Below are positions 1-9,560 of a stretch of 42,312 nucleotides of DNA, in pieces. This DNA is from Candidatus Rokubacteria bacterium CSP1-6 (GTDB lineage: Bacteria; Methylomirabilota; Methylomirabilia; Rokubacteriales; CSP1-6). The notes under the pieces are model-generated. The model saw only the letters and a program-made list of their open reading frames with translations, did not search any database and was not told the DNA's origin. The stretch lies in contig LDXP01000015.1 of the NCBI GenBank assembly GCA_001443385.1, positions 1-42,312 of the forward strand, written 5' to 3'. Numbering within the stretch: position 1 is the stretch's first letter; each line of letters opens with the position of its first letter. Position numbers and translations under genes: made by a program.

Positions 1-771
1 GCGGAGCACCGGGAAGGTCGCGTAGTGGAAGGGGATCGCGTACTTGGGCTTGAGCATCTCCTTGGTCGCGTAGGCGGCGTCCTTCGGGTCCATGCCGAAG
101 TGGCCGCCGATGGGGATCATGACCAGGTCGGGCTTGTAATAGTCGCCGATGAGCTTCATGTCGCCGAAGAGCCCGGTGTCCCCCATGTGGTAGAGCTTGA
201 AGCCGTTCTCCAGCTCCACGATGTACCCGACCGGCTCACCCGCGGTGTAGGTGGTGCTCTTCTTCGTCGCCGGGTCGATGAGCGTGAGGTCCGAAAAGTG
301 CTCGGCCCGGACCTGGGTGACGGTGATCTGGGGGCCGGCCGGCTGAACCTTGCCGCTCTTGGCGAAGCCCACCCCCTGCGCCGCCGGAACCCAGCCGATC
401 TCCACCAGCATCCGGATGAGCGTCGTGGACCCGAGGACCTTCGCGCCGGTGCGCTTGGCGAGGTCCGCCACGTCGCTCGACCCGTCGGTGCGACCGACGG
501 TGCCGAGATGATCGCCGTGAGCGTGCGTCACCAGGATCATGTCCACGTTGCCCAGCGCGTCCAGGTTCTTGTGCTGGGGAGGCGTCTTGGGGTTCGTGGT
601 GAGCCACGGGTCGATGACGATCACCTTGCCGGTGAGGGTGGTGATCTTGGTCGCCGACTGCCCCAGCCACTGGACCTCCACCTTGGCGCTCTGGGCCCAC
701 GCGGGGCCGGCGGCCAGCGTGAAGGTCATGGCCCCTGCGAACTTCAGAAAGTCTCGCCGCTGCATCTCCAT
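1..771 (-). CDS. Tat-exported metallo-beta-lactamase-fold hydrolase, copy 1 (partial)
   Basis: The start codon is at 771 and the reading frame runs left off the window edge, so about 28 C-terminal residues are missing. The 257 visible codons match the complete copy at 912-1769 except for substitutions at 16 (silent) and 30 (Phe here, Val in the other copy). It has a twin-arginine leader (RRDFLK) and the zinc motif THAHGDH. The family is the UPF0173-like metal-dependent hydrolases; the substrate is not known. An AGGAGG ribosome binding site precedes the start. The gene is the left arm of a long inverted repeat and diverges from its twin across about 140 bp. Confidence 0.9.
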   Translation of the reverse strand, partial: MEMQRRDFLKFAGAMTFTLAAGPAWAQSAKVEVQWLGQSATKITTLTGKVIVIDPWLTTNPKTPPQHKNLDALGNVDMILVTHAHGDHLGTVGRTDGSSDVADLAKRTGAKVLGSTTLIRMLVEIGWVPAAQGVGFAKSGKVQPAGPQITVTQVRAEHFSDLTLIDPATKKSTTYTAGEPVGYIVELENGFKLYHMGDTGLFGDMKLIGDYYKPDLVMIPIGGHFGMDPKDAAYATKEMLKPKYAIPFHYATFPVLR

Positions 772-800
772 GTGTGCCTCCTTGTATGGGTTACCACCTT

Positions 801-880
801 CATCCTCTCCCCCCCGAGGGGGAGAGGGCAGGGTGAGGGGGGAGAGGAGAAGAGGTGAGGGGCATTCAAGTGGGAGAGGA
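801..880 (-). repeat. GC-rich dispersed intergenic repeat, copy A
   Basis: This is the centre of the inverted repeat. It contains CCCTCTCCCC-type and GGGGAGAGGG-type half sites joined by a GGTGAGGGG segment, so it can fold into hairpins. Read on the minus strand it is almost identical to copy B at 1796-1882, over roughly 70 bp with about one substitution and one small indel. Related copies lie near 12853, 20001 and 26677. The family resembles REP-type palindromes; no protein is encoded. Confidence 0.8.
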
Positions 881-911
881 TGAAGGTGGTAACCCATACA
901 AGGAGGCACAC

Positions 912-1769
912 ATGGAGATGCAGCGGCGAGACTTTCTGAAGTTCGCAGGGGCCATGACCTTCACGCTGGCCGCCGGCCCCGCGTGGGCCCAGAGCGCCAA
1001 GGTGGAGGTCCAGTGGCTGGGGCAGTCGGCGACCAAGATCACCACCCTCACCGGCAAGGTGATCGTCATCGACCCGTGGCTCACCACGAACCCCAAGACG
1101 CCTCCCCAGCACAAGAACCTGGACGCGCTGGGCAACGTGGACATGATCCTGGTGACGCACGCTCACGGCGATCATCTCGGCACCGTCGGTCGCACCGACG
1201 GGTCGAGCGACGTGGCGGACCTCGCCAAGCGCACCGGCGCGAAGGTCCTCGGGTCCACGACGCTCATCCGGATGCTGGTGGAGATCGGCTGGGTTCCGGC
1301 GGCGCAGGGGGTGGGCTTCGCCAAGAGCGGCAAGGTTCAGCCGGCCGGCCCCCAGATCACCGTCACCCAGGTCCGGGCCGAGCACTTTTCGGACCTCACG
1401 CTCATCGACCCGGCGACGAAGAAGAGCACCACCTACACCGCGGGTGAGCCGGTCGGGTACATCGTGGAGCTGGAGAACGGCTTCAAGCTCTACCACATGG
1501 GGGACACCGGGCTCTTCGGCGACATGAAGCTCATCGGCGACTATTACAAGCCCGACCTGATCATGATCCCCATCGGCGGCCACTTCGGCATGGACCCGAA
1601 GGACGCCGCCTACGCGACCAAGGAGATGCTCAAGCCCAAGTACGCGATCCCCGTCCACTACGCGACGTTCCCGGTGCTCCGCGGGACACCCCAGGAGTAC
1701 CAGGCTGCGCTCGGGCAGACGGCGACCCAGGTCTTCCCGATCGGCCCCGGCGACAAGGTCACATTCTAG
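912..1769 (+). CDS. Tat-exported metallo-beta-lactamase-fold hydrolase, copy 2 (complete)
   Basis: A 285-residue protein. Residues 1-28 form a Tat-type leader (RRDFLKF, hydrophobic core, AWA cleavage region), so export to the periplasm is expected. The body is a UPF0173-like metallo-beta-lactamase fold: zinc motif THAHGDH near residue 80, a further GDTG motif, and a C-terminal VHY segment. Typical UPF0173 proteins are about 230 residues; the extra length is the leader plus loops. ATG at 912 is chosen because AGGAGG lies five bases upstream. It lies between two oppositely oriented copies of the GC-rich repeat. A hydrolase of unknown substrate is the safest call. Confidence 0.93.
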   Translation: MEMQRRDFLKFAGAMTFTLAAGPAWAQSAKVEVQWLGQSATKITTLTGKVIVIDPWLTTNPKTPPQHKNLDALGNVDMILVTHAHGDHLGTVGRTDGSSDVADLAKRTGAKVLGSTTLIRMLVEIGWVPAAQGVGFAKSGKVQPAGPQITVTQVRAEHFSDLTLIDPATKKSTTYTAGEPVGYIVELENGFKLYHMGDTGLFGDMKLIGDYYKPDLIMIPIGGHFGMDPKDAAYATKEMLKPKYAIPVHYATFPVLRGTPQEYQAALGQTATQVFPIGPGDKVTF

Positions 1770-1795
1770 CCGGCACGATGATGCCGCTCCGAGCC

Positions 1796-1888
1796 CCCTC
1801 CCACTCGATGCCCCTCACCTCTTCTCCTCTCCCCCCTCACCCTGCCCTCTCCCCCTCGGGGGGGAGAGGATGAAGGTGAGGGGATTAT
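1796..1888 (+). repeat. GC-rich dispersed intergenic repeat, copy B
   Basis: Located just after the stop of the complete hydrolase gene and inverted relative to copy A. It contains a CCCTCTCCCC...GGGGGAGAGG hairpin followed by GGTGAGGGG. Copies A and B therefore flank the 912-1769 gene as an inverted pair, an arrangement that could mediate inversion or duplication by recombination. It could also act as a transcription terminator hairpin, though there is no T-run. Confidence 0.8.
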
Positions 1889-1935
1889 GAGTGGGGTGAG
1901 GGGAGGGTGGGGTGAGGGGCAGGAGGAGTGGGCGC

Positions 1936-2249
1936 ATGAGCGCGACGGTCGAGGTCCACTGGCTGGGGCACGCCGCGACCAAGCTCACCTCGCTGACCGG
2001 CAAGGTGATCGTCATCGATCCGTTCCTCACCCCGAATCCGAAAACGCCCCCGCAGTACAAGAACCTGGACGCGCTGGGGCACGTGGACGTGACGCGACCC
2101 GGGAGATGCTCAAGCCCCGCTACGCGATCCCCTTCCACTACGGGACGTTCCCCCTGCTGAAGGGGACGCCCGAGGAGTACCAGAGCTTCCTCGGCCAGAC
2201 GACGACCCAGGTCTTTCCGATCAGCCCGGGCGACACGCTGACGTTCTAG
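1936..2249 (+). pseudogene. Internally deleted third copy of the hydrolase gene
   Basis: The start at 1936 follows an AGGAGG site and encodes about 52 residues matching the mature N-terminus of the hydrolase up to VDV. There is no Tat leader. At about 2089-2095 the reading frame jumps: downstream sequence in another frame (stop 2247-2249) encodes the C-terminal 52 or so residues, from ATREMLKP to the stop. Relative to the intact copy, about 470 bp are missing, including the THAHGDH zinc motif, and the junction shifts the frame. The product cannot be an active hydrolase. Sequence divergence from the intact copy shows this is an older paralogue, not part of the recent inverted duplication. Confidence 0.9.
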
Positions 2250-2269
2250 TCTGTATCGCTTATTGGGCA

Positions 2270-2298
2270 TTGACACGCCCGCATCCCGCCGGTAGCAT
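2270..2298 (+). promoter_or_regulatory. Sigma-70-type promoter of the secreted-protein operon
   Basis: TTGACA (2270-2275), a 17-bp spacer, then TAGCAT (2293-2298). The predicted start of transcription is near 2305, leaving a leader of about 26 bases with AAGG ten bases before the ATG at 2331. It serves the operon 2331-8520. Confidence 0.65.
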
Positions 2299-2330
2299 CC
2301 CGCCCACGTTCGTTCCAAGGTTTCTCTGTC

Positions 2331-4643
2331 ATGGTTCGACGACAGCGAGTCTCCATCGGAATCGCCGCGCTTCTGTCGTTGGCCGCCCTGCTCCTGCCCG
2401 CGTCGGCGCGTCAATCGAAGGCGGTCGTGTCTGCCCTGGCACCGGTAGAGATTGTCGCGGAAGGCCTTGGTCATCTTCGGGGTGTCGCGGTGAACGAAAG
2501 CGGCGCGGTGTTTGTCACGGACGCGAAAGCGGGAACGCTCCTTCGGGTTGCGCCCGATGGCGCGCGGGCGCTCGTCATGGAACGGCTCAGGCATCCAGTG
2601 GGTGTGGCGGTGGATCGGGAAGGCCGGCTGGTCGTCGTCGAAGAGGGACGACGACAAGTTCTTCGACTGGAGACCGGAGGCGGCGCAACATCGCTGATCT
2701 CCTGGATCAGGCACCCACGGTGGGTCGCCGTCGCTCCTGACGGGCACCTCTACGTCACGGCGAAAAGCCTCGCCTCCGGGGACGAGGAGGGCGAGGGCGA
2801 CGAGGTGGAGCCCGAGCTGGTGGCGAGGGTCTCGCCTGATGGCATCGCGACGGTGTTCGCCGACCGGTTCCGCGGGCTTCAGGGCGTGGCGGTGGCAGAG
2901 GACGCGCTCCGGTTGGTGGCGCGGGGACGGAGGGGCGAGCGCCACCCGGCCGGAACCCTCTATGAGATTTCAATCCAGCCCGACGGCCGGGCTGGTCCCG
3001 TGCAACCCGTCAGGACGGGCGAGCTTGCGGGGCCCGTCGGACTTGCCGCTGATCGGTTGGGAGCGTATTTTGTCAGCGCTAAATCCCTCGCCGCGGAGCC
3101 ATGGCGCCGCGGCGTCGTCCTGAAAATTGCGGAGGACGGCGCCGCGACCCTCTTTGCCGCGGGCTTGGATGATCCGCGAGGCCTGGCGTTTGCCCCGGAT
3201 GGGTCGCTCCACCTGGCCGACGGCAACGCCGGCCGGATTCTTCGCTTCGCCGCTCCGCGCGCGCCCGTCGTCGATGAATTCCCTCCGGCCGTCACTGGTG
3301 AACGCCAGGTTGCCCTTCGGCTAAGGGCGGAAGCAGGCGCTCGGCTGACGGTTCTGGGCGGCCAATTCCCCCTCGTCGTGGCGGTTGATGACGTGGGATC
3401 TGCGAGGGTTTGGGTGCCGCTCCGGCGGAACGCGGAAAACCACCTGCTGGTGTTCGCCACCGGGAGCGCCGGCCTGGGGCTGACCTCCGCGCCGCTCCCA
3501 CTGAGCATCACGCAGGACGAAGAGCCACCCGCACTCGAGCTTCTGGCCCCGCGGGCGGGAGCGCTCCTTCGTGGTACGATCGCCGCGGAGGCCCGCGCAA
3601 CGGACTTGAACGGGATTGCCGATGTCCAATTTCGCCTCGATGAGTTGACGGTCGGGTTCGACGCGGCGCCGCCATTCAGGGTGAGCGTGGACACCGCGGT
3701 GGTGCCGGACGGTCTGCGGGTCGTGTCGGCGCTCGCCCGGGATCGGGCGGGCAACCTCAGAAGCGCGAGCGTTCCGGTGACGGTTGACAACACGCGGCCC
3801 GAGGTGAGGATCGTCGCGCCGGCTCCAGGGGCCGTCGTCGTCGGCCCCATCGAAGTTCTCGTCGAGGCGGCGGACGCGACCTCGGGCGTCGCTCAGGTCG
3901 AGCTGGCGGTCAACGGGACATCCCGATCTGTGGCTGAAACACCGCCCTACCGGTTCATGTTGGACCCGCGGGAGTTGGGGTCGGGGCCACAGGTCCTGGA
4001 GGCCGCCGCGGTGGATCGAGCGGGTAACCGTGGTGAATCGCCTCCAGTGTCGGTCGTTCTTTCCGGCACGCCGGGGGAGATCCAAGTGGGCGACCTGGTG
4101 GCTGCGCCGTCGAGCGGAGTGGCGCCCCTGACGGTGGTCTTCTCGTTGCTGAGGGCCACTGGGGGCACCATCGCGCTGGATGCCGACGGGAACGGCATCG
4201 TGGACTTTATCGGACCGAGCCGGGACGGCCAAACCTTCACGTACGCTCGGCCCGGTCTCTACTTCCCCACGGCGACAATCACCGATGCCGGGGGGACGCA
4301 ATCCACGGTGACCACCGTCGTGAACGTCGAGGATCCGCAAACCGTGACGACCCGTTTCCAGGGTCTGTGGACGAACCTGAAGGCCCGTCTCGGAGCCGGA
4401 GATGTCCCCGGGGCTCTCGCGCACCTCGCCCCGAACCTCCAGCCACGATTCCAGACGGTCTTCCAGCAACTCCGAACGGATCTGCCGGCGGTTGCGGCGA
4501 GTCTCGGAGACCTCGAGGTCCTGGAGCAGGTCGGCGATCTGGCCGAAACGGCGATCGTCCAGCAGGAGAATGGCGCTCCATTCCTCTACTTCATTTACTT
4601 CCGTCGAGATAGCCTCGGCCGCTGGCTGATCGAGGAGATGTAG
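2331..4643 (+). CDS. Secreted beta-propeller/Ig-like/PKD protein
   Basis: A 770-residue exported protein. Residues 1-28 are a signal peptide. Residues about 45-320 contain repeated motifs of the type GVAVxxxGxxFVTD and GLAFAPDGSLHLAD, typical of NHL or SMP-30-like six-bladed propellers. Two Ig-like domains follow (about 390-580, each with a conserved DRAGN motif), then a PKD-like domain (about 585-665, with DADGNGIVDF). The last 100 residues are helical and end in RWLIEEM, reminiscent of an NTF2-like fold (weak). No enzyme residues are evident; a surface or periplasmic binding role is inferred. First gene of a three-gene operon, two bases before the next start. Confidence 0.88.
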   Translation: MVRRQRVSIGIAALLSLAALLLPASARQSKAVVSALAPVEIVAEGLGHLRGVAVNESGAVFVTDAKAGTLLRVAPDGARALVMERLRHPVGVAVDREGRLVVVEEGRRQVLRLETGGGATSLISWIRHPRWVAVAPDGHLYVTAKSLASGDEEGEGDEVEPELVARVSPDGIATVFADRFRGLQGVAVAEDALRLVARGRRGERHPAGTLYEISIQPDGRAGPVQPVRTGELAGPVGLAADRLGAYFVSAKSLAAEPWRRGVVLKIAEDGAATLFAAGLDDPRGLAFAPDGSLHLADGNAGRILRFAAPRAPVVDEFPPAVTGERQVALRLRAEAGARLTVLGGQFPLVVAVDDVGSARVWVPLRRNAENHLLVFATGSAGLGLTSAPLPLSITQDEEPPALELLAPRAGALLRGTIAAEARATDLNGIADVQFRLDELTVGFDAAPPFRVSVDTAVVPDGLRVVSALARDRAGNLRSASVPVTVDNTRPEVRIVAPAPGAVVVGPIEVLVEAADATSGVAQVELAVNGTSRSVAETPPYRFMLDPRELGSGPQVLEAAAVDRAGNRGESPPVSVVLSGTPGEIQVGDLVAAPSSGVAPLTVVFSLLRATGGTIALDADGNGIVDFIGPSRDGQTFTYARPGLYFPTATITDAGGTQSTVTTVVNVEDPQTVTTRFQGLWTNLKARLGAGDVPGALAHLAPNLQPRFQTVFQQLRTDLPAVAASLGDLEVLEQVGDLAETAIVQQENGAPFLYFIYFRRDSLGRWLIEEM

Positions 4644-4645
4644 GG

Positions 4646-5317
4646 TTGCGGCGGGCCATCGGAATCGTGCTGCTTCTCCTAGCGGGCCTTCTTGTCCCGC
4701 GTTTGGCCGAGGCCAACATCCTCTGCAGGTGGTTCGGGTACTGTGTCTATGAGAGTCCCGGCTTCCGAATCGCCGTCGCAGACCGGGAGACAGGCCAGCC
4801 ACTGGCCGACGTGCACGCGTTGGCCGAATGGCAGATGTACGGCTCTCATGGACGTAACGGGCCGCTGATGGTCCAGGATGCGGTGACCGGTTCCGACGGG
4901 GTCATCGCCTTCCCGCCCTGGGGGCCGATCCGTGACTCGACCGCCGGTCTCGTCCTCAACCACGATCCGGTCATCAGCCTCTTCAAGCCGGGGTACAAGG
5001 TCTTGACAATCTTCAACGTCCCGGGCACGGACGAGACCGCCCGCGTCCGTGGACTCCGCCAGGACGGCCAGACGTACTTCCTGGAGCCGTTTCGAGGGAC
5101 GCCCGAGGAGTGGGTGGAGGAACTGGAGAAAGTGTGGGTCGGTCGCGCAACCCCCCGAAGCGACGAGCAAACTCTCAAGTTTCGCGGCCCTTACGCGAAT
5201 CGAGTGCGCTACGTGCGGGCCGAGCGCGAGAAGGTCCCTGCGCGATTTCGATCTCCTGGCCAGTTCTTCTCATCGGTGGAAGCGGTGCTGAGATTCTTCG
5301 AGGAGGGGCACCGATGA
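4646..5317 (+). CDS. Exported protein with possible carboxypeptidase-regulatory-like domain
   Basis: A 223-residue protein starting at TTG, two bases after the upstream stop codon, so translational coupling is likely. Residues 1-23 are a signal peptide (hydrophobic core, AEA before the mature N-terminus). The segment after residue 40 (FRIAVADRETGQPLADVHA) looks like the opening strands of a transthyretin/carboxypeptidase-regulatory-like beta sandwich; this is a weak resemblance. The C-terminal 80 residues are charged and unrecognised. Its stop overlaps the next gene by four bases. Function unknown, but its position between two secreted proteins suggests a shared extracellular process. Confidence 0.8.
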   Translation: MRRAIGIVLLLLAGLLVPRLAEANILCRWFGYCVYESPGFRIAVADRETGQPLADVHALAEWQMYGSHGRNGPLMVQDAVTGSDGVIAFPPWGPIRDSTAGLVLNHDPVISLFKPGYKVLTIFNVPGTDETARVRGLRQDGQTYFLEPFRGTPEEWVEELEKVWVGRATPRSDEQTLKFRGPYANRVRYVRAEREKVPARFRSPGQFFSSVEAVLRFFEEGHR

Positions 5318-8300
5318 AGCTCATTAGAGTCGTCGCCGGTTTACTCCTTGTGTTGCTGCTCTGGCCCCAGAGCGAGTCCGTCAGCGCCTACGAGCTGATG
5401 ACTCATGCCAAGGTGTCGGGACGCGCCTTCGATACGTCAGAGCGGGTACGCATGTACTTGGAGGACGTGGGAATCAAGGTGAGCGACCTCTTCGATCAAG
5501 AGAGCGCCGAAGGGAGGGAATCGACGGTATTCGCCGGGTTCAGAAACACCGGTACCCTGCGCGGCTGGATGACCGCCGGCGCCATTCGGGAGGACGACTT
5601 TCAACCGCACCCGGGGTGCCGGCAGCCGCTGAACCCTCCGTCGGCGATGGACCGACCTCTCAATCATTTCCTCGACGTGCAGCGAGGCGGCCGGGGGCTC
5701 ACAGTCCTTGGCCTTGAGCGCGGCTTCCCCGCGCCCGACTGGGCCCTGGGACTGCAGGGCCGGGGCCCGGACGACACCCAGAATCAATTCTCCGTCCTTG
5801 ACGCCAGAGTCTATCAACTCAGGTCGCTGACGGCTCCAACGCGCGACGAGCGGGACCGGAACACGGCCCTTCTCTTCCGGACGCTGGGGCACGTTATTCA
5901 TGCGCTGGAGGACACGGGTCAACCCCAGCACACCCGTAATGATCCACATGCCGGATGCTTCCAGTTCATCGCCGGGGAGCATAGCTGGTTCGAGGACTAC
6001 ATGGAAACGCGGGCGCGGGGGATTGCCTTCCGCGCTCGGAGCCTGCCGAGTCCCCCGCTGCTCCTGGACGGCTATTCGCCAGTGGGCTTTCAGGCCTACC
6101 GCGACTACTGGACGAATCCCACTCTCTCGGGCCTGGCAGATTTCTCCAGCCGGAACTTCCTCTCGGCCGGGACCAACCTGGGCCGCAACTGCGACGGACT
6201 CCCCGAGCCGCCGTGCAGCCCCGACGCCTATGGCCAGCGCGAGGTGACCATCTCGGCCCTAACCATCAGCGGCACGCCGCTAACGGGGACAGTGAGGCTG
6301 TTCAATCGCCGGATGCGGGATCCCGTGACTGGAGGCATGGTGACGACGCGTGACCCAGTGACTGGGGAGATTACCGAAGATGTGCCCGTGACGAGCCGCT
6401 CCGTGTGGGATCAGCACCTGGAGACACGCGGATTGTTCCCGCTCTTCTCCCTGAACACGCTCAACTACGATTCCATCAGCGACGTCCTGCTCCCCCGTGC
6501 GGTGGGCTACGCGGCGGGTCTGCTCGACCACTTTTTCCGCGGAAAGCTCGACGTGGACCTGGTGCCGGCGGACCCCAATGATCCATCGGTGGTTCGAGTG
6601 ACCGGCGCCAACGCATCCACGGATGTGCTGCAGGGCGGGACTCTCACCCTGTATGCCGATGACCCGACCGACCCCACCGGCAAGCGCGACCCGGCCGCGG
6701 CGCTGGATCAGGATCTCACGGTGACGGCGGAGAGCGGCGCACCGGTTGAGTCCGCGCGGTTTCGGGTTCCCGCGGATACCGAACGATTCATGGTTGTTTA
6801 CAAGGGAACGCTGGGGCAGGAGGCTGAAACCGGTACCTTCCCCGGCGGGGTGGTCGGCAAGGTCCTCGGAGGTGTGCGGGTGGAGGAAGTTTTCTCCGAC
6901 GGCACCCGCTGGAAACTTCGGACGCCCAGGGGGGTGTTCGTCCTCCAGGGATTGACCCCAGCCGAATTCGAGAAGGTTCGATGGGGGGACGGCGACAGCC
7001 TCCTGGTGGCTCTCACGCCCTTCGGGCCGGGTCAGCCGAATCGCGTGGCGGCGTACGAGGTCGGGCGCCAGCCGGGATCCATGGAGCTGGTGACGGTGAA
7101 CACCCCCGGCGGGCCGGAGGTACCGGTCGTCAAGAAGAACGAGGCGGCCTTTCCCTTCGGGATGTCGCTCGACACCACTGTGGAGTTCTCCCAGACCATC
7201 CACTACCGGCAGCTCGTCCCGACTTTCCAGGTGACGGGGATATATGAGTACGTGCCGATTCCAGGTCAGCCCGGGGCCATCAATTACATCGGCCCCACCT
7301 TGGAATTCACCCCCCTCCAGATCGGGACGCCCGTCAGTCAGACCGTGAGGTTTGCGGAGAGTTTCCCCATCCGGCTGGATCTGGCGCGCCAGGCCGACTC
7401 TTGGACGATGTGGCGCCCGTATGTCTGGTACCTGCAAGATGTGGCGGCGAGCGCGTCCGGTCGCCTCCTGGGGCTGGTCCTCGTATGGCTGACGGAGCCC
7501 GACGTCCCACGCGTGAGCCTACCGTTCTACGGCCTGAATCCCTCCACCGGGCCCGAAGTCACCGGGCAAGTGGATTTCACCCCGTCCTTTCCCGCGGAGG
7601 TAAATCCCCTTTTGTGGGCGGTCGTGGATCTCAAGGAGGGTCGCGTCGTGGCCTCCACGGCTGAGGCCGTCATCACGATCTCCAGCGAGGAGGGGCGCGA
7701 GACATTCCTGGAGGCCCCGCGTCTGGGAGCCATCGTCGCGGACCATGGGCTCGAGGCCTATAACGGAGGGCCGCTGGCGGGCGTCTACGACCGGGGGTGG
7801 TTCGCGCTCCCCCTGGTCTCGCCGGACGGGTTGCCGCCAATCGGGGAGTTGACGGAATTGCCGCCGTCGCAAGGGGGAATCCTGACGATCTCCGCGGACG
7901 GATGGCTGCGGGGGGATCTGAAGGATGAGTTGGGGCGGTTAGGGCTCTCCACGTTTCAGATGAATGCCCGTCAGGTCTCTGGGGACGCCGTTTATCTCTG
8001 CCTCCCCACCTCTTGCAAGGCCATCCGACACATGACCACAGTGAGTGAGGTCGTGCGGTCGCCTGCCACACTCGACGACGCGCGTCGTTCGCGTCCGGTG
8101 CCCGGAGGTGAGCGCGTGGTCTTCTTGACAGGGAGTGGGACCGCAGGGCCGACCCTCCTGGTCTGGGATCCGGAAACCCCGAAGGCGAAGGTCGTCCATC
8201 AGTTCCCCGCGTCCGAGGGCCCTATCCTGGGACCGGCGACCCGCACCACCGCCATGATCTTCTCTTTTGTCCTACAGGGCGAAATGCTCCTCCCATCGAC

Positions 8301-8520
8301 CATGCTGATTCCGCTCGATGGGAGCCGACCGCCAACGGCTTTTCCGGGAGAGGATTTGAGTCTCTCGTTTGCCCTCTTGGATCAGAACTACCTCTATCAT
8401 GTCGGCGAGCAGAAGTTCTATCGCCCCAAGCCCTCGCTTCAGCCGACGGCCCTGCCCGCCAGGCTGGCGGATGTCCCCGGCAACCCGGTCGGGGATTATC
8501 ACGCGATCCGGCTGCCGTAA
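5314..8520 (+). CDS. Large secreted protein with zinc phospholipase C/P1-nuclease-like domain
   Basis: A 1068-residue protein; ATG at 5314 has AGGAGGGG upstream and overlaps the previous stop (ATGA). Residues 1-25 are a signal peptide. The N-terminal 250 residues carry the zinc-ligand layout of bacterial phospholipase C and S1/P1 nuclease: His31, His118, then H196-x3-D200-x5-H206 (within HALEDTGQPQH) and H223-x3-E227 (HSWFE). That spacing equals the H118/D122/H128 and H142/E146 pattern known for Bacillus cereus phospholipase C. The remaining 800 residues are beta-rich and unrecognised, far longer than the 250-350 residues usual for these enzymes. Lipid or nucleic-acid phosphoester hydrolysis outside the cell is inferred. 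Confidence 0.85.
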   Translation: MKLIRVVAGLLLVLLLWPQSESVSAYELMTHAKVSGRAFDTSERVRMYLEDVGIKVSDLFDQESAEGRESTVFAGFRNTGTLRGWMTAGAIREDDFQPHPGCRQPLNPPSAMDRPLNHFLDVQRGGRGLTVLGLERGFPAPDWALGLQGRGPDDTQNQFSVLDARVYQLRSLTAPTRDERDRNTALLFRTLGHVIHALEDTGQPQHTRNDPHAGCFQFIAGEHSWFEDYMETRARGIAFRARSLPSPPLLLDGYSPVGFQAYRDYWTNPTLSGLADFSSRNFLSAGTNLGRNCDGLPEPPCSPDAYGQREVTISALTISGTPLTGTVRLFNRRMRDPVTGGMVTTRDPVTGEITEDVPVTSRSVWDQHLETRGLFPLFSLNTLNYDSISDVLLPRAVGYAAGLLDHFFRGKLDVDLVPADPNDPSVVRVTGANASTDVLQGGTLTLYADDPTDPTGKRDPAAALDQDLTVTAESGAPVESARFRVPADTERFMVVYKGTLGQEAETGTFPGGVVGKVLGGVRVEEVFSDGTRWKLRTPRGVFVLQGLTPAEFEKVRWGDGDSLLVALTPFGPGQPNRVAAYEVGRQPGSMELVTVNTPGGPEVPVVKKNEAAFPFGMSLDTTVEFSQTIHYRQLVPTFQVTGIYEYVPIPGQPGAINYIGPTLEFTPLQIGTPVSQTVRFAESFPIRLDLARQADSWTMWRPYVWYLQDVAASASGRLLGLVLVWLTEPDVPRVSLPFYGLNPSTGPEVTGQVDFTPSFPAEVNPLLWAVVDLKEGRVVASTAEAVITISSEEGRETFLEAPRLGAIVADHGLEAYNGGPLAGVYDRGWFALPLVSPDGLPPIGELTELPPSQGGILTISADGWLRGDLKDELGRLGLSTFQMNARQVSGDAVYLCLPTSCKAIRHMTTVSEVVRSPATLDDARRSRPVPGGERVVFLTGSGTAGPTLLVWDPETPKAKVVHQFPASEGPILGPATRTTAMIFSFVLQGEMLLPSTMLIPLDGSRPPTAFPGEDLSLSFALLDQNYLYHVGEQKFYRPKPSLQPTALPARLADVPGNPVGDYHAIRLP

Positions 8521-8528
8521 AAATCAAA

Positions 8529-8559
8529 GGGCGCGGGTCTCGACCGAGCACCCGCGCCC
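8529..8559 (-). terminator. Intrinsic terminator between convergent genes
   Basis: A perfect 10-bp stem, GGGCGCGGGT (8529-8538) and ACCCGCGCCC (8550-8559), with a loop that can itself pair. On the minus strand the stem is followed by a T-rich tract (complement of 8521-8528 and the preceding bases), so it terminates mlaA. On the plus strand there is no T-run, but the hairpin may still protect the operon transcript. Confidence 0.8.
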
Positions 8560-8588
8560 CGAGAAGGCGGCGACAGCGGCGGGAGGGG

Positions 8589-9560
8589 CTACTCCTTGAT
8601 CAGCTTCAGGCGCCGCTGGAGATAGGCGTTCCGGAGAGCGCTGTAGAACTCGACGGTCGTCTCCTCGAAGCCCTGGTAGAGGTCGAGGTTGACCGAGCGA
8701 TCGTTGACGGTGTCCCCGGCCTTCATCCCCAGCCGGGTCCAGATGAAGGGCAGGAAATAGACCAGGGGATCCATCGCCCCGTCGGCCACGTAGCCGATGG
8801 CGTCGCGCACCGTCAGCGGCGGCAGGAACGGCAGCATGAGGTACGGGCCGGGCCCGAACCCCCACACGCCGAGCGTCTGGCCGGTGTCCTCGTTGCACTT
8901 CTGGATACCGAACTCTTGCTTGGCGGGGTCGAACATGCCCGCGATGCCTAAGGTGCTGTTGATGACCAGGCGCCCGAGCTCGCTGCCGGCGCCGACGAGT
9001 TTGCCCTGGAGCAGGCAGTTGATGAAGCGCGGGACGACGCGGATGTTGTCGAAGCCGTTGCCGATCATCATCTGGAACAGATCGGGCATGACCGTGTTAT
9101 AGCCCTTGGCCACGGGCTTGAGGATCCAGCGATCCAGCCAGCGGTTGAACTCGAACATCCCTTCGTTGAAGGGCTCCCAGGGATCGTACTCTTCGATCAC
9201 GACGTCCGGGGGCGGGCCGGCGCGCCGCTGGGCGACGTCCGTGGCGTCGGCCTCGGCCGCCATGGCGAACTGGGGCGCGTCCAGGGAGTAGGGCGAGTCC
9301 CCGTCTGCCGGCCAGGCGAACTCGATGCGCGTCTCGTCGGCGTCCAGGCTGAGGGCGACCACGCTCAGATCGGGGCCCGTGCGCTCGGCGGCGAGGGCGT
9401 GGGCGTCCGCGGCGACGCTGCGGTCCGGCGGGGGCGATTCGGGGAGTGCGGCGGTGGGGGTATCCCGGAGGATGCCGGTCAGTCCGGCGCAGCCTCCGAG
9501 CCCGAGAGCGAGGACGACGAACAGCACCCACTGGGCCAGTCCGCTTGAACGTGAACGCAC
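8589..9560 (-). CDS. mlaA: MlaA/VacJ family lipoprotein
   Basis: A 323-residue outer-membrane lipoprotein of the retrograde phospholipid-transport (Mla) system. Residues 1-24 form a lipoprotein signal ending in LGGC, with Cys24 the lipidated residue. The family core starts at about residue 115 with YDPWEPFNEGMFEFN and contains the usual NGFDN, RFxN, INSTLG and FGxWGFGPGPYLMLP-type segments. GTG at 9560 is chosen for the GGAGAGAG site just upstream. The segment between residues 25 and 110 is a low-complexity linker longer than in the Escherichia coli protein. mlaC lies separately at 40804-41400; no mlaBDEF genes are present in the window. Confidence 0.95.
   Translation of the reverse strand: MRSRSSGLAQWVLFVVLALGLGGCAGLTGILRDTPTAALPESPPPDRSVAADAHALAAERTGPDLSVVALSLDADETRIEFAWPADGDSPYSLDAPQFAMAAEADATDVAQRRAGPPPDVVIEEYDPWEPFNEGMFEFNRWLDRWILKPVAKGYNTVMPDLFQMMIGNGFDNIRVVPRFINCLLQGKLVGAGSELGRLVINSTLGIAGMFDPAKQEFGIQKCNEDTGQTLGVWGFGPGPYLMLPFLPPLTVRDAIGYVADGAMDPLVYFLPFIWTRLGMKAGDTVNDRSVNLDLYQGFEETTVEFYSALRNAYLQRRLKLIKE

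What the first reader, a model, noticed from the sequence alone, without database searches (positions are those of the whole stretch)
2331..8520. Three-gene secretion operon with a complete phospholipase C/P1-nuclease zinc site in a 1068-residue protein
One promoter, gaps of 2 bp and -4 bp, and three signal peptides. The last protein keeps the H-x3-D-x5-H and H-x3-E ligands but has some 800 extra residues of unknown beta-rich sequence. The first is a propeller/Ig/PKD binding protein. Together they look like an extracellular lipid- or nucleic-acid-degrading or cell-surface module that I cannot match to a named system. The operon also looks less GC-rich than its neighbours, suggesting transfer.
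Basis: partly seen in the sequence, partly recalled or inferred. Interest (0 to 1): 0.7.

Follow-up and report, generated by a model that had tools for sequence, protein, structure and literature searches.

The report
Swappable enzyme cassette spanning three genes
A widely conserved but undescribed three-gene set for secreted proteins carries, at its centre, a phospholipase-like enzyme domain, a small envelope protein and a small companion domain that bacteria of at least three phyla exchange as one block, as is known from bacterial toxin/antidote genes, which suggests a hidden weapon or variable surface system in soil and groundwater microbes.

Summary
The operon is real, and its order is conserved from Rokubacteria (this genome) to Beta- and Gammaproteobacteria and Nitrospirae. 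Of 52 loci with enough upstream sequence, 51 carry gene 1 upstream of gene 3. No other gene family is conserved nearby. The N-terminal domain of gene 3 (residues 26-418) is a remote member of the phospholipase C/P1-nuclease superfamily: profile E=7e-7 to Bacillus phospholipase C, also the best PDB fold match. The C-terminal ~650 residues look propeller-like. The main discovery: the variable unit is not a gene but a block of about 2.2 kb (4328-6484) holding the last domain of gene 1 (NTF2-like, inferred), gene 2, and the enzyme domain of gene 3. It is replaced between close relatives or paralogues in three phyla, each time at nearly the same domain boundaries, while flanking DNA is 70-93% identical. 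Orphan [gene 2 + gene 3 fragment] units lie upstream of intact copies. I read it as an exchangeable enzyme/partner cassette, probably conflict-driven. Toxicity and enzyme activity are untested.

The parts
2270..2298 (+). sigma-70-like promoter site TTGACA-17-TAGCAT
   Evidence: Consensus scan, 1 found against 0.7 expected by chance; weak
2331..4643 (+). Gene 1 (G1), 770 aa, exported scaffold with NHL propeller repeats, Big_7 Ig-like domains and a PKD-like segment
   Evidence: ORF; Pfam NHL, Big_7, SGL
2331..4327 (+). G1N, constant part of gene 1
   Evidence: 87% DNA identity to same-genus G002 up to 4327
4308..4640 (+). G1CT, last domain of gene 1 (~105 aa, NTF2-like inferred); first part of the exchanged block
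   Evidence: Domain at the extreme C-terminus of all G1 relatives; weak hits to DUF4864, DUF4440, SnoaL_2, DUF4878
4646..5317 (+). Gene 2 (G2), 223 aa, envelope protein with transthyretin-like (carboxypeptidase-regulatory-like) domain; middle part of the block
   Evidence: 19 of 26 relatives match PF13620; between G1 and G3 in at least 47 of 58 loci
5314..8520 (+). Gene 3 (G3), 1068 aa
   Evidence: ORF; homologues in 28 of 60 relatives
5314..5388 (+). Predicted signal peptide of gene 3, cleavage VSA|Y26
   Evidence: Sequence; Ala before Tyr/Phe in 19 of 19 sequences checked
5389..6567 (+). G3N, phospholipase C-like zinc domain (H31, E93/D94, H118, H196, D200, H206, H212, E227); last part of the block
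   Evidence: Conservation; PDB profile E=6.9e-7 to PC-PLC; model pLDDT 92; best fold match PC-PLC
6568..8520 (+). G3C, constant beta-rich, propeller-like C-terminal part
   Evidence: Model pLDDT mostly above 90; DPP4-type matches
4328..6484 (+). Exchangeable block: G1CT + G2 + G3N
   Evidence: No DNA match to same-genus G002 between alignable flanks; rho 0.87-0.90 within the block against about 0 across its borders; same borders in two other phyla

Best explanation
The locus is an exported surface module with constant outer parts and an exchangeable core. SHOWN: the core is one block made of the last domain of gene 1, all of gene 2 and the phospholipase C-like domain of gene 3; the three co-vary and are replaced together. 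INFERRED: G3N is a zinc phosphodiesterase of the phospholipase C superfamily that becomes active only after export, because signal-peptide removal exposes the mature N-terminus (Y26, with H31 at mature position 6), and in the S1-type relatives the mature N-terminus coordinates zinc. G2, an envelope-located transthyretin-like protein that is sometimes replaced by a small membrane protein, is its cognate partner and most likely shields the producer's own membranes (immunity-like) or acts as adaptor. G1CT is a cognate docking domain that ties the enzyme to the gene 1 scaffold. Whole cassettes are exchanged by recombination in conserved sequence on either side, and displaced [G2 + broken G3N] units pile up upstream of the intact gene. 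The most likely purpose is antagonism towards other cells with changing specificities.
For: Order and linkage conserved across phyla. Genome co-occurrence p=4e-9. Superfamily: ligand-type residues, PDB profile match, fold match. Block: DNA breakpoints in three independent comparisons; segment correlations with same-protein controls. Partner swapped for a membrane protein several times. Duplicated G2 and orphan [G2 + G3N fragment] units. Type II secretion genes divergent next to the module in L089 and L117. Precedents: displaced effector/immunity arrays (PMC5361080), lipase effectors with lipoprotein immunity (PMC9860674), N-terminal zinc ligand in S1 nuclease (PMC5201275).
Against: No activity, toxicity or interaction was tested. 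No dedicated delivery machine is conserved with the module. Zinc geometry was not measured, and the role of H212 is a guess. The fold match to PC-PLC has a low TM-score (0.26/0.40). G2 could be a chaperone or adaptor rather than an immunity protein. The middle of G002's operon is missing from its assembly.
Confidence: 0.5

Rival explanations
1. Nutrient-scavenging exoenzyme: a secreted phospholipase C-like enzyme releases phosphate or lipid from soil debris. G2 is a dedicated foldase or secretion chaperone, G1 an anchor. Core exchange reflects substrate adaptation.
For: Export signals; soil and groundwater carriers; type II secretion genes beside two loci; propeller and BNR-type outer domains.
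Against: Does not readily explain repeated unlike replacement of the middle gene, tandem G2 copies, or orphan [G2 + G3N fragment] units.
Confidence: 0.27
2. Variable surface complex without toxicity (phage, grazer or partner recognition): the core diversifies to change surface identity, and the enzyme fold serves as a binding or processing domain.
For: Large repeat scaffolds; fixed locus with variable core.
Against: Ligand-type residues are nearly invariant in 79 relatives, which points to catalysis.
Confidence: 0.12
3. Secreted S1/P1-type nuclease degrading extracellular nucleic acids.
For: Same superfamily; H at mature position 6 as in P1 (position from general knowledge); a weak fold match to SmNuc1.
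Against: Sequence profile finds only phospholipase C in the PDB; S1-P1_nuclease model hits 1 of 79 at E=0.069.
Confidence: 0.08
4. Assembly artefact: chimeric metagenome contigs mimic block exchange.
For: Nearly all sources are MAGs; contigs of G001 and G002 break inside the operon; the window starts with a suspicious palindrome.
Against: Near-identical borders in three phyla, two of the cases inside long contigs (275 and 82 kb; 61 and 63 kb); block-wide correlation over 42 operons.
Confidence: 0.03

Closest known systems
Zinc-dependent phospholipase C (Bacillus cereus PC-PLC; clostridial alpha-toxin; PF00882)
   Same: HF motif, upstream Asp, H-x3-D-x5-H and final Glu align; best fold match; exported
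   Different: Below the Pfam cut-off; the His of H-x3-E is not conserved and H212 is; long propeller-like C-terminal part; obligate partner genes
S1/P1 nucleases (PF02265)
   Same: Same superfamily; His at mature position 6 (P1 position from general knowledge); N-terminus probably a zinc ligand
   Different: No significant sequence match; HF-D-P-type motif is closer to phospholipase C
Polymorphic toxin systems (CDI, Rhs; PMC3482391)
   Same: Constant part plus exchangeable part with linked small gene; orphan units
   Different: The enzyme domain is N-terminal, its partner lies upstream, and the block spans two partial genes and one whole gene; no demonstrated toxicity
Het-C (Tox-HET-C) domain (PMC3482391)
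   Same: Proposed relative of phospholipase C and S1-P1 in toxin loci
   Different: Motif HxxxDxxxH there, HxxxDxxxxxH here
T6SS lipase effectors with immunity lipoproteins (Tle/Tli; PMC9860674) and displaced effector arrays (PMC5361080)
   Same: Phospholipase paired with an envelope lipoprotein; successive displacement leaves arrays of partner genes
   Different: Different enzyme class (Tle1-4 have GxSxG, Tle5 are phospholipase D); no T6SS genes among conserved neighbours; Sec-type signal peptide; remnants lie upstream rather than downstream

Membership tests
Phospholipase C/P1 nuclease superfamily | All-alpha catalytic fold | tested here: met
   Model pLDDT 92, largely helical core with a beta insert; best PDB match PC-PLC, prob 0.99, but TM-score only 0.26/0.40
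Phospholipase C/P1 nuclease superfamily | Core ligands: early His, Asp, His of HF, H-x3-D-x5-H | tested here: met
   H31, D94, H118, D200, H206 in 79/79, H196 in 78/79; motif pairing with PC-PLC
Phospholipase C/P1 nuclease superfamily | Last ligand pair H-x3-[DE] | tested here: not met
   Glu in 78/79, but His four before it in only 4 of 79 (the window protein has it); H212 conserved instead
Phospholipase C/P1 nuclease superfamily | Three-zinc geometry | not testable with these tools
PF00882 zinc-dependent phospholipase C | Curated score cut-off | tested here: not met
   Window protein no hit; 18 of 79 relatives weak, best E=0.0017
PF02265 S1-P1 nuclease | Match to the family model | tested here: not met
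   1 of 79 at E=0.069
Polymorphic toxin systems | Constant region joined to an exchangeable domain | tested here: met
   Three exchanges and block-wise correlations
Polymorphic toxin systems | Linked immunity gene that moves with the toxin domain | tested here: inconclusive
   G2 moves with G3N (rho 0.88) but immunity was not tested
Polymorphic toxin systems | Orphan or displaced modules | tested here: met
   [G2 + G3N fragment] units in L085, L093, L098, L105, L119, L129, L147
Polymorphic toxin systems | Dedicated delivery system | tested here: inconclusive
   Signal peptides; type II secretion genes near L089 and L117 only
Polymorphic toxin systems | Toxic activity | not testable with these tools
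   Needs the bench
Het-C domain | HxxxDxxxH motif | tested here: not met
   Spacing is HxxxDxxxxxH (definition in PMC3482391)
T6SS Tle lipase effectors | VgrG/Hcp/PAAR linkage | tested here: not met
   No gene family other than G1-G3 in more than 6 of 80 loci
Known anti-phage defence systems | Match to a PADLOC model | tested here: not met
   No hit for any of the three proteins

The most novel reading that the evidence does not exclude
A new class of polymorphic conflict system, the mirror image of CDI/Rhs toxins: an N-terminal, exported phospholipase C-superfamily toxin domain, its upstream envelope immunity protein and a docking domain at the end of the preceding scaffold gene move as a single cassette between constant regions of two different genes, in at least three phyla.
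Probability: 0.35. Interest if true: 0.88.

Novelty: new variant of a known kind. Interest (0 to 1): 0.74.

Why it matters
It joins two unnamed protein families, an unnamed domain and a divergent branch of a classic enzyme superfamily into one testable system. A swap block that starts inside one gene and ends inside another is direct evolutionary evidence that three separate chains work together. It also gives a concrete candidate weapon or variable surface complex in Rokubacteria and other mostly uncultured soil and groundwater bacteria. Cognate and non-cognate sets already exist in nature (for example L117 against L089), so the central prediction can be tested directly.

Tried and rejected
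Whole-operon transfer judged by GC: rejected, because flanking genes and outer operon parts are syntenic in the same genus. Direct Pfam/NCBIfam naming of proteins 2 and 3: nothing. PF00882 search of the own genome: no match. Single-sequence PDB search: only chance-level V-ATPase hits. First full-length model: N-terminal half poor with 22 sequences, so the domain was re-modelled with 79. Search for relatives on plasmids and phages: none. Search for other conserved neighbours: none beyond 6 loci. G1CT by PDB profile: nothing convincing; the NTF2-like label rests on weak Pfam hits. G2 by PDB profile: nothing. Literature searches found no description of this module within the open-access papers held. 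Pfam on the membrane proteins that replace G2: nothing above cut-off.

Full report
WHERE IT LIES. The window is contig C15 of a 2.9-Mb draft genome. Its relatives are Candidatus Rokubacteria. Below, G1 is 2331-4643, G2 is 4646-5317 and G3 is 5314-8520. G1N/G1CT and G3N/G3C are their N- and C-terminal parts.

THE OBSERVATION. Coordinates, spacing (+2, -4) and export segments are as described. The promoter-like site is unremarkable statistically. G1 carries NHL and Big_7 hits; proteins 2 and 3 hit nothing in Pfam or NCBIfam.

LINKAGE. Homologues of G3 occur in 28 of 60 sampled relatives and in at least 196 places in a one-genome-per-species collection, of which 80 were kept. Record titles name Rokubacteria, Nitrospirae, Beta-, Gamma- and Deltaproteobacteria, plus single Verrucomicrobia- and Thermomicrobia-labelled MAGs. 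Among 80 loci, clustering of all neighbouring genes gives G3 (80 loci), G1 (59) and G2 (41), then nothing above 6. G1 relatives end in the same ~105-residue domain, nearly always 2-3 residues from the C-terminus. Of 52 loci with at least 2.5 kb upstream of G3, 51 have this domain upstream on the same strand. Across 57 family genomes the two co-occur (27 both, 5 and 2 alone, 23 neither; p=4e-9). Several of the G3-only genomes have contigs that end at the locus.

THE ENZYME DOMAIN. An alignment of 79 G3N domains has H31, E93, D94, H118, D200 and H206 invariant, and H196, H212 and E227 in 78 (numbering of the full protein). The profile finds Bacillus phospholipase C in the PDB at E=6.9e-7, pairing the HF motif, H-x3-D-x5-H and the last glutamate. 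PF00882 matches 18 of 79 members weakly. AlphaFold2 gives pLDDT 92, and the best PDB fold match is phospholipase C, with a low TM-score. That H212 takes over the missing ligand is inference; geometry was not measured. An alanine precedes Y/F26 in all 19 sequences checked, so H31 would be mature residue 6. In S1 nuclease the mature N-terminus binds zinc (PMC5201275), so activity may depend on export (inference). G3C is well modelled and beta-rich; its best matches are DPP4-type entries, with poor superposition over the whole length. In some Betaproteobacteria the C-terminal part has BNR repeats instead.

THE OTHER TWO PARTS. G2 relatives match carboxypeptidase-regulatory-like domains (19 of 26), a transthyretin-like fold (established knowledge of that family). 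All those listed have an N-terminal hydrophobic segment; 27 of 64 have a lipobox-like motif by a simple pattern that misses some. G2 sits between G1 and G3 in at least 47 of 58 loci. In five loci a small protein with several hydrophobic segments (read by eye) takes its place; on the G3N tree this needs five changes, at least four forced by well-supported branches (quick tree). G1CT has weak hits to several NTF2-type Pfam families.

THE EXCHANGED BLOCK. Against same-genus genome G002, the window matches at 87% over 2253-4327, has no detectable DNA match over 4328-6484, is 73% from 6485, and about 90% from 8320 through mlaA and beyond (fine profile; neighbour proteins 87-94%). The breaks coincide with the start of G1CT (4320) and the last helix of G3N (ends near 6561). 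The same picture holds in Betaproteobacteria (L117 vs L089: flanks 83-91%, core almost wholly lost over L117:6723-8773; G1CT starts 6615, G3N ends 8843) and for two paralogous loci in one Nitrospirae MAG (L141 vs L140: flanks about 70%, lost from 7074 to 9085; G1CT starts 7013, G3N ends 9158). Over 17 Rokubacterial-group operons, similarity of G1CT, G2 and G3N correlates at rho 0.87-0.90, whereas parts of the same protein do not correlate (G1N-G1CT -0.05; G3N-G3C 0.01). The contrast survives removal of the window's cassette group and holds, less sharply, in 25 other operons (G1CT-G3N 0.72 against G3N-G3C 0.24). The window's cassette is closest to cassettes in G026, L066, L048 and L153, whose gene 1 scaffolds differ.

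CAVEATS. G1N is built of common repeat domains, so its similarities are noisy. Mantel tests do not fully remove relatedness; the same-protein contrast is the better control. The middle of G002's operon is absent from its assembly, so its two halves are joined only by synteny with the window.

ORPHAN UNITS. Several loci carry extra G2 genes or [G2 + truncated G3N] units upstream of the intact G3: L085, L093, L098, L105, L119 and L129, with a nearly complete extra domain in L104. L147 is an array of four such fragments at about 1-kb spacing. Most copies within a locus are 30-90% identical, so most are not recent duplicates; L129 (100%) is an exception. In Vibrio cholerae T6SS clusters, displaced effector-immunity pairs leave comparable arrays (PMC5361080).

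INTERPRETATION. The block is a co-adapted unit: an enzyme domain, an envelope partner and a domain on the scaffold (strongly supported). That it is an enzyme/immunity cassette used against other cells is the reading that best covers co-exchange, partner duplication, partner replacement and orphan units, but it is untested. Lipase effectors with lipoprotein immunity exist (Tle/Tli, PMC9860674). The same paper notes a transthyretin-like domain of VgrG that binds a lipase effector, so G2 could be an adaptor instead. A scavenging enzyme and a variable surface complex remain open.

NOVELTY. No database family searched and no held paper found describes the module. It works like a polymorphic cassette system but differs in anatomy: enzyme domain first, partner upstream, and block boundaries inside two genes. 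I rate it a new variant of a known kind.

Noticed in passing
window 1-811 and 872-1682: Near-perfect palindrome: the first 811 bases are the reverse complement (99.6%) of 872-1682, with a 60-base centre, at the very start of the contig. Looks like an assembly artefact or a recent inverted duplication of a metallo-beta-lactamase-fold gene.
   Followed up: partly
window 1928-2250: Internally deleted copy of the same metallo-beta-lactamase-fold gene: two parts that match separate parts of the intact gene in G002 are fused at 2092.
   Followed up: partly
window 8589-9560: MlaA lipoprotein gene (phospholipid trafficking; PF04333), convergent with the operon and syntenic in G001 and G002. A lipid-linked neighbour, possibly by chance.
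   Followed up: no
L147 (G078 contig C99) about 480-4105: Tandem array of four [G2 + truncated G3N] units at about 1-kb spacing in a Rokubacterial genome.
   Followed up: partly
L112, L130, L135, L138, L144: The middle gene is replaced by small, apparently unrelated membrane proteins of 100-150 aa without convincing Pfam matches.
   Followed up: partly
L092, L095, L097, L100, L113, L131: G1 is enlarged to about 1280-1917 aa, in part by extra Ig-like repeats, yet keeps the same C-terminal domain.
   Followed up: no
L089 and L117: Type II secretion-like genes (GspE, GspF, GspG by eye) diverge directly upstream of the module.
   Followed up: partly
L048/L071 (G005) and L072/L156 (G001): G3 is interrupted by a stop or frameshift in two Rokubacterial genomes, so the gene may be decaying there, or the assembly has errors.
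   Followed up: no
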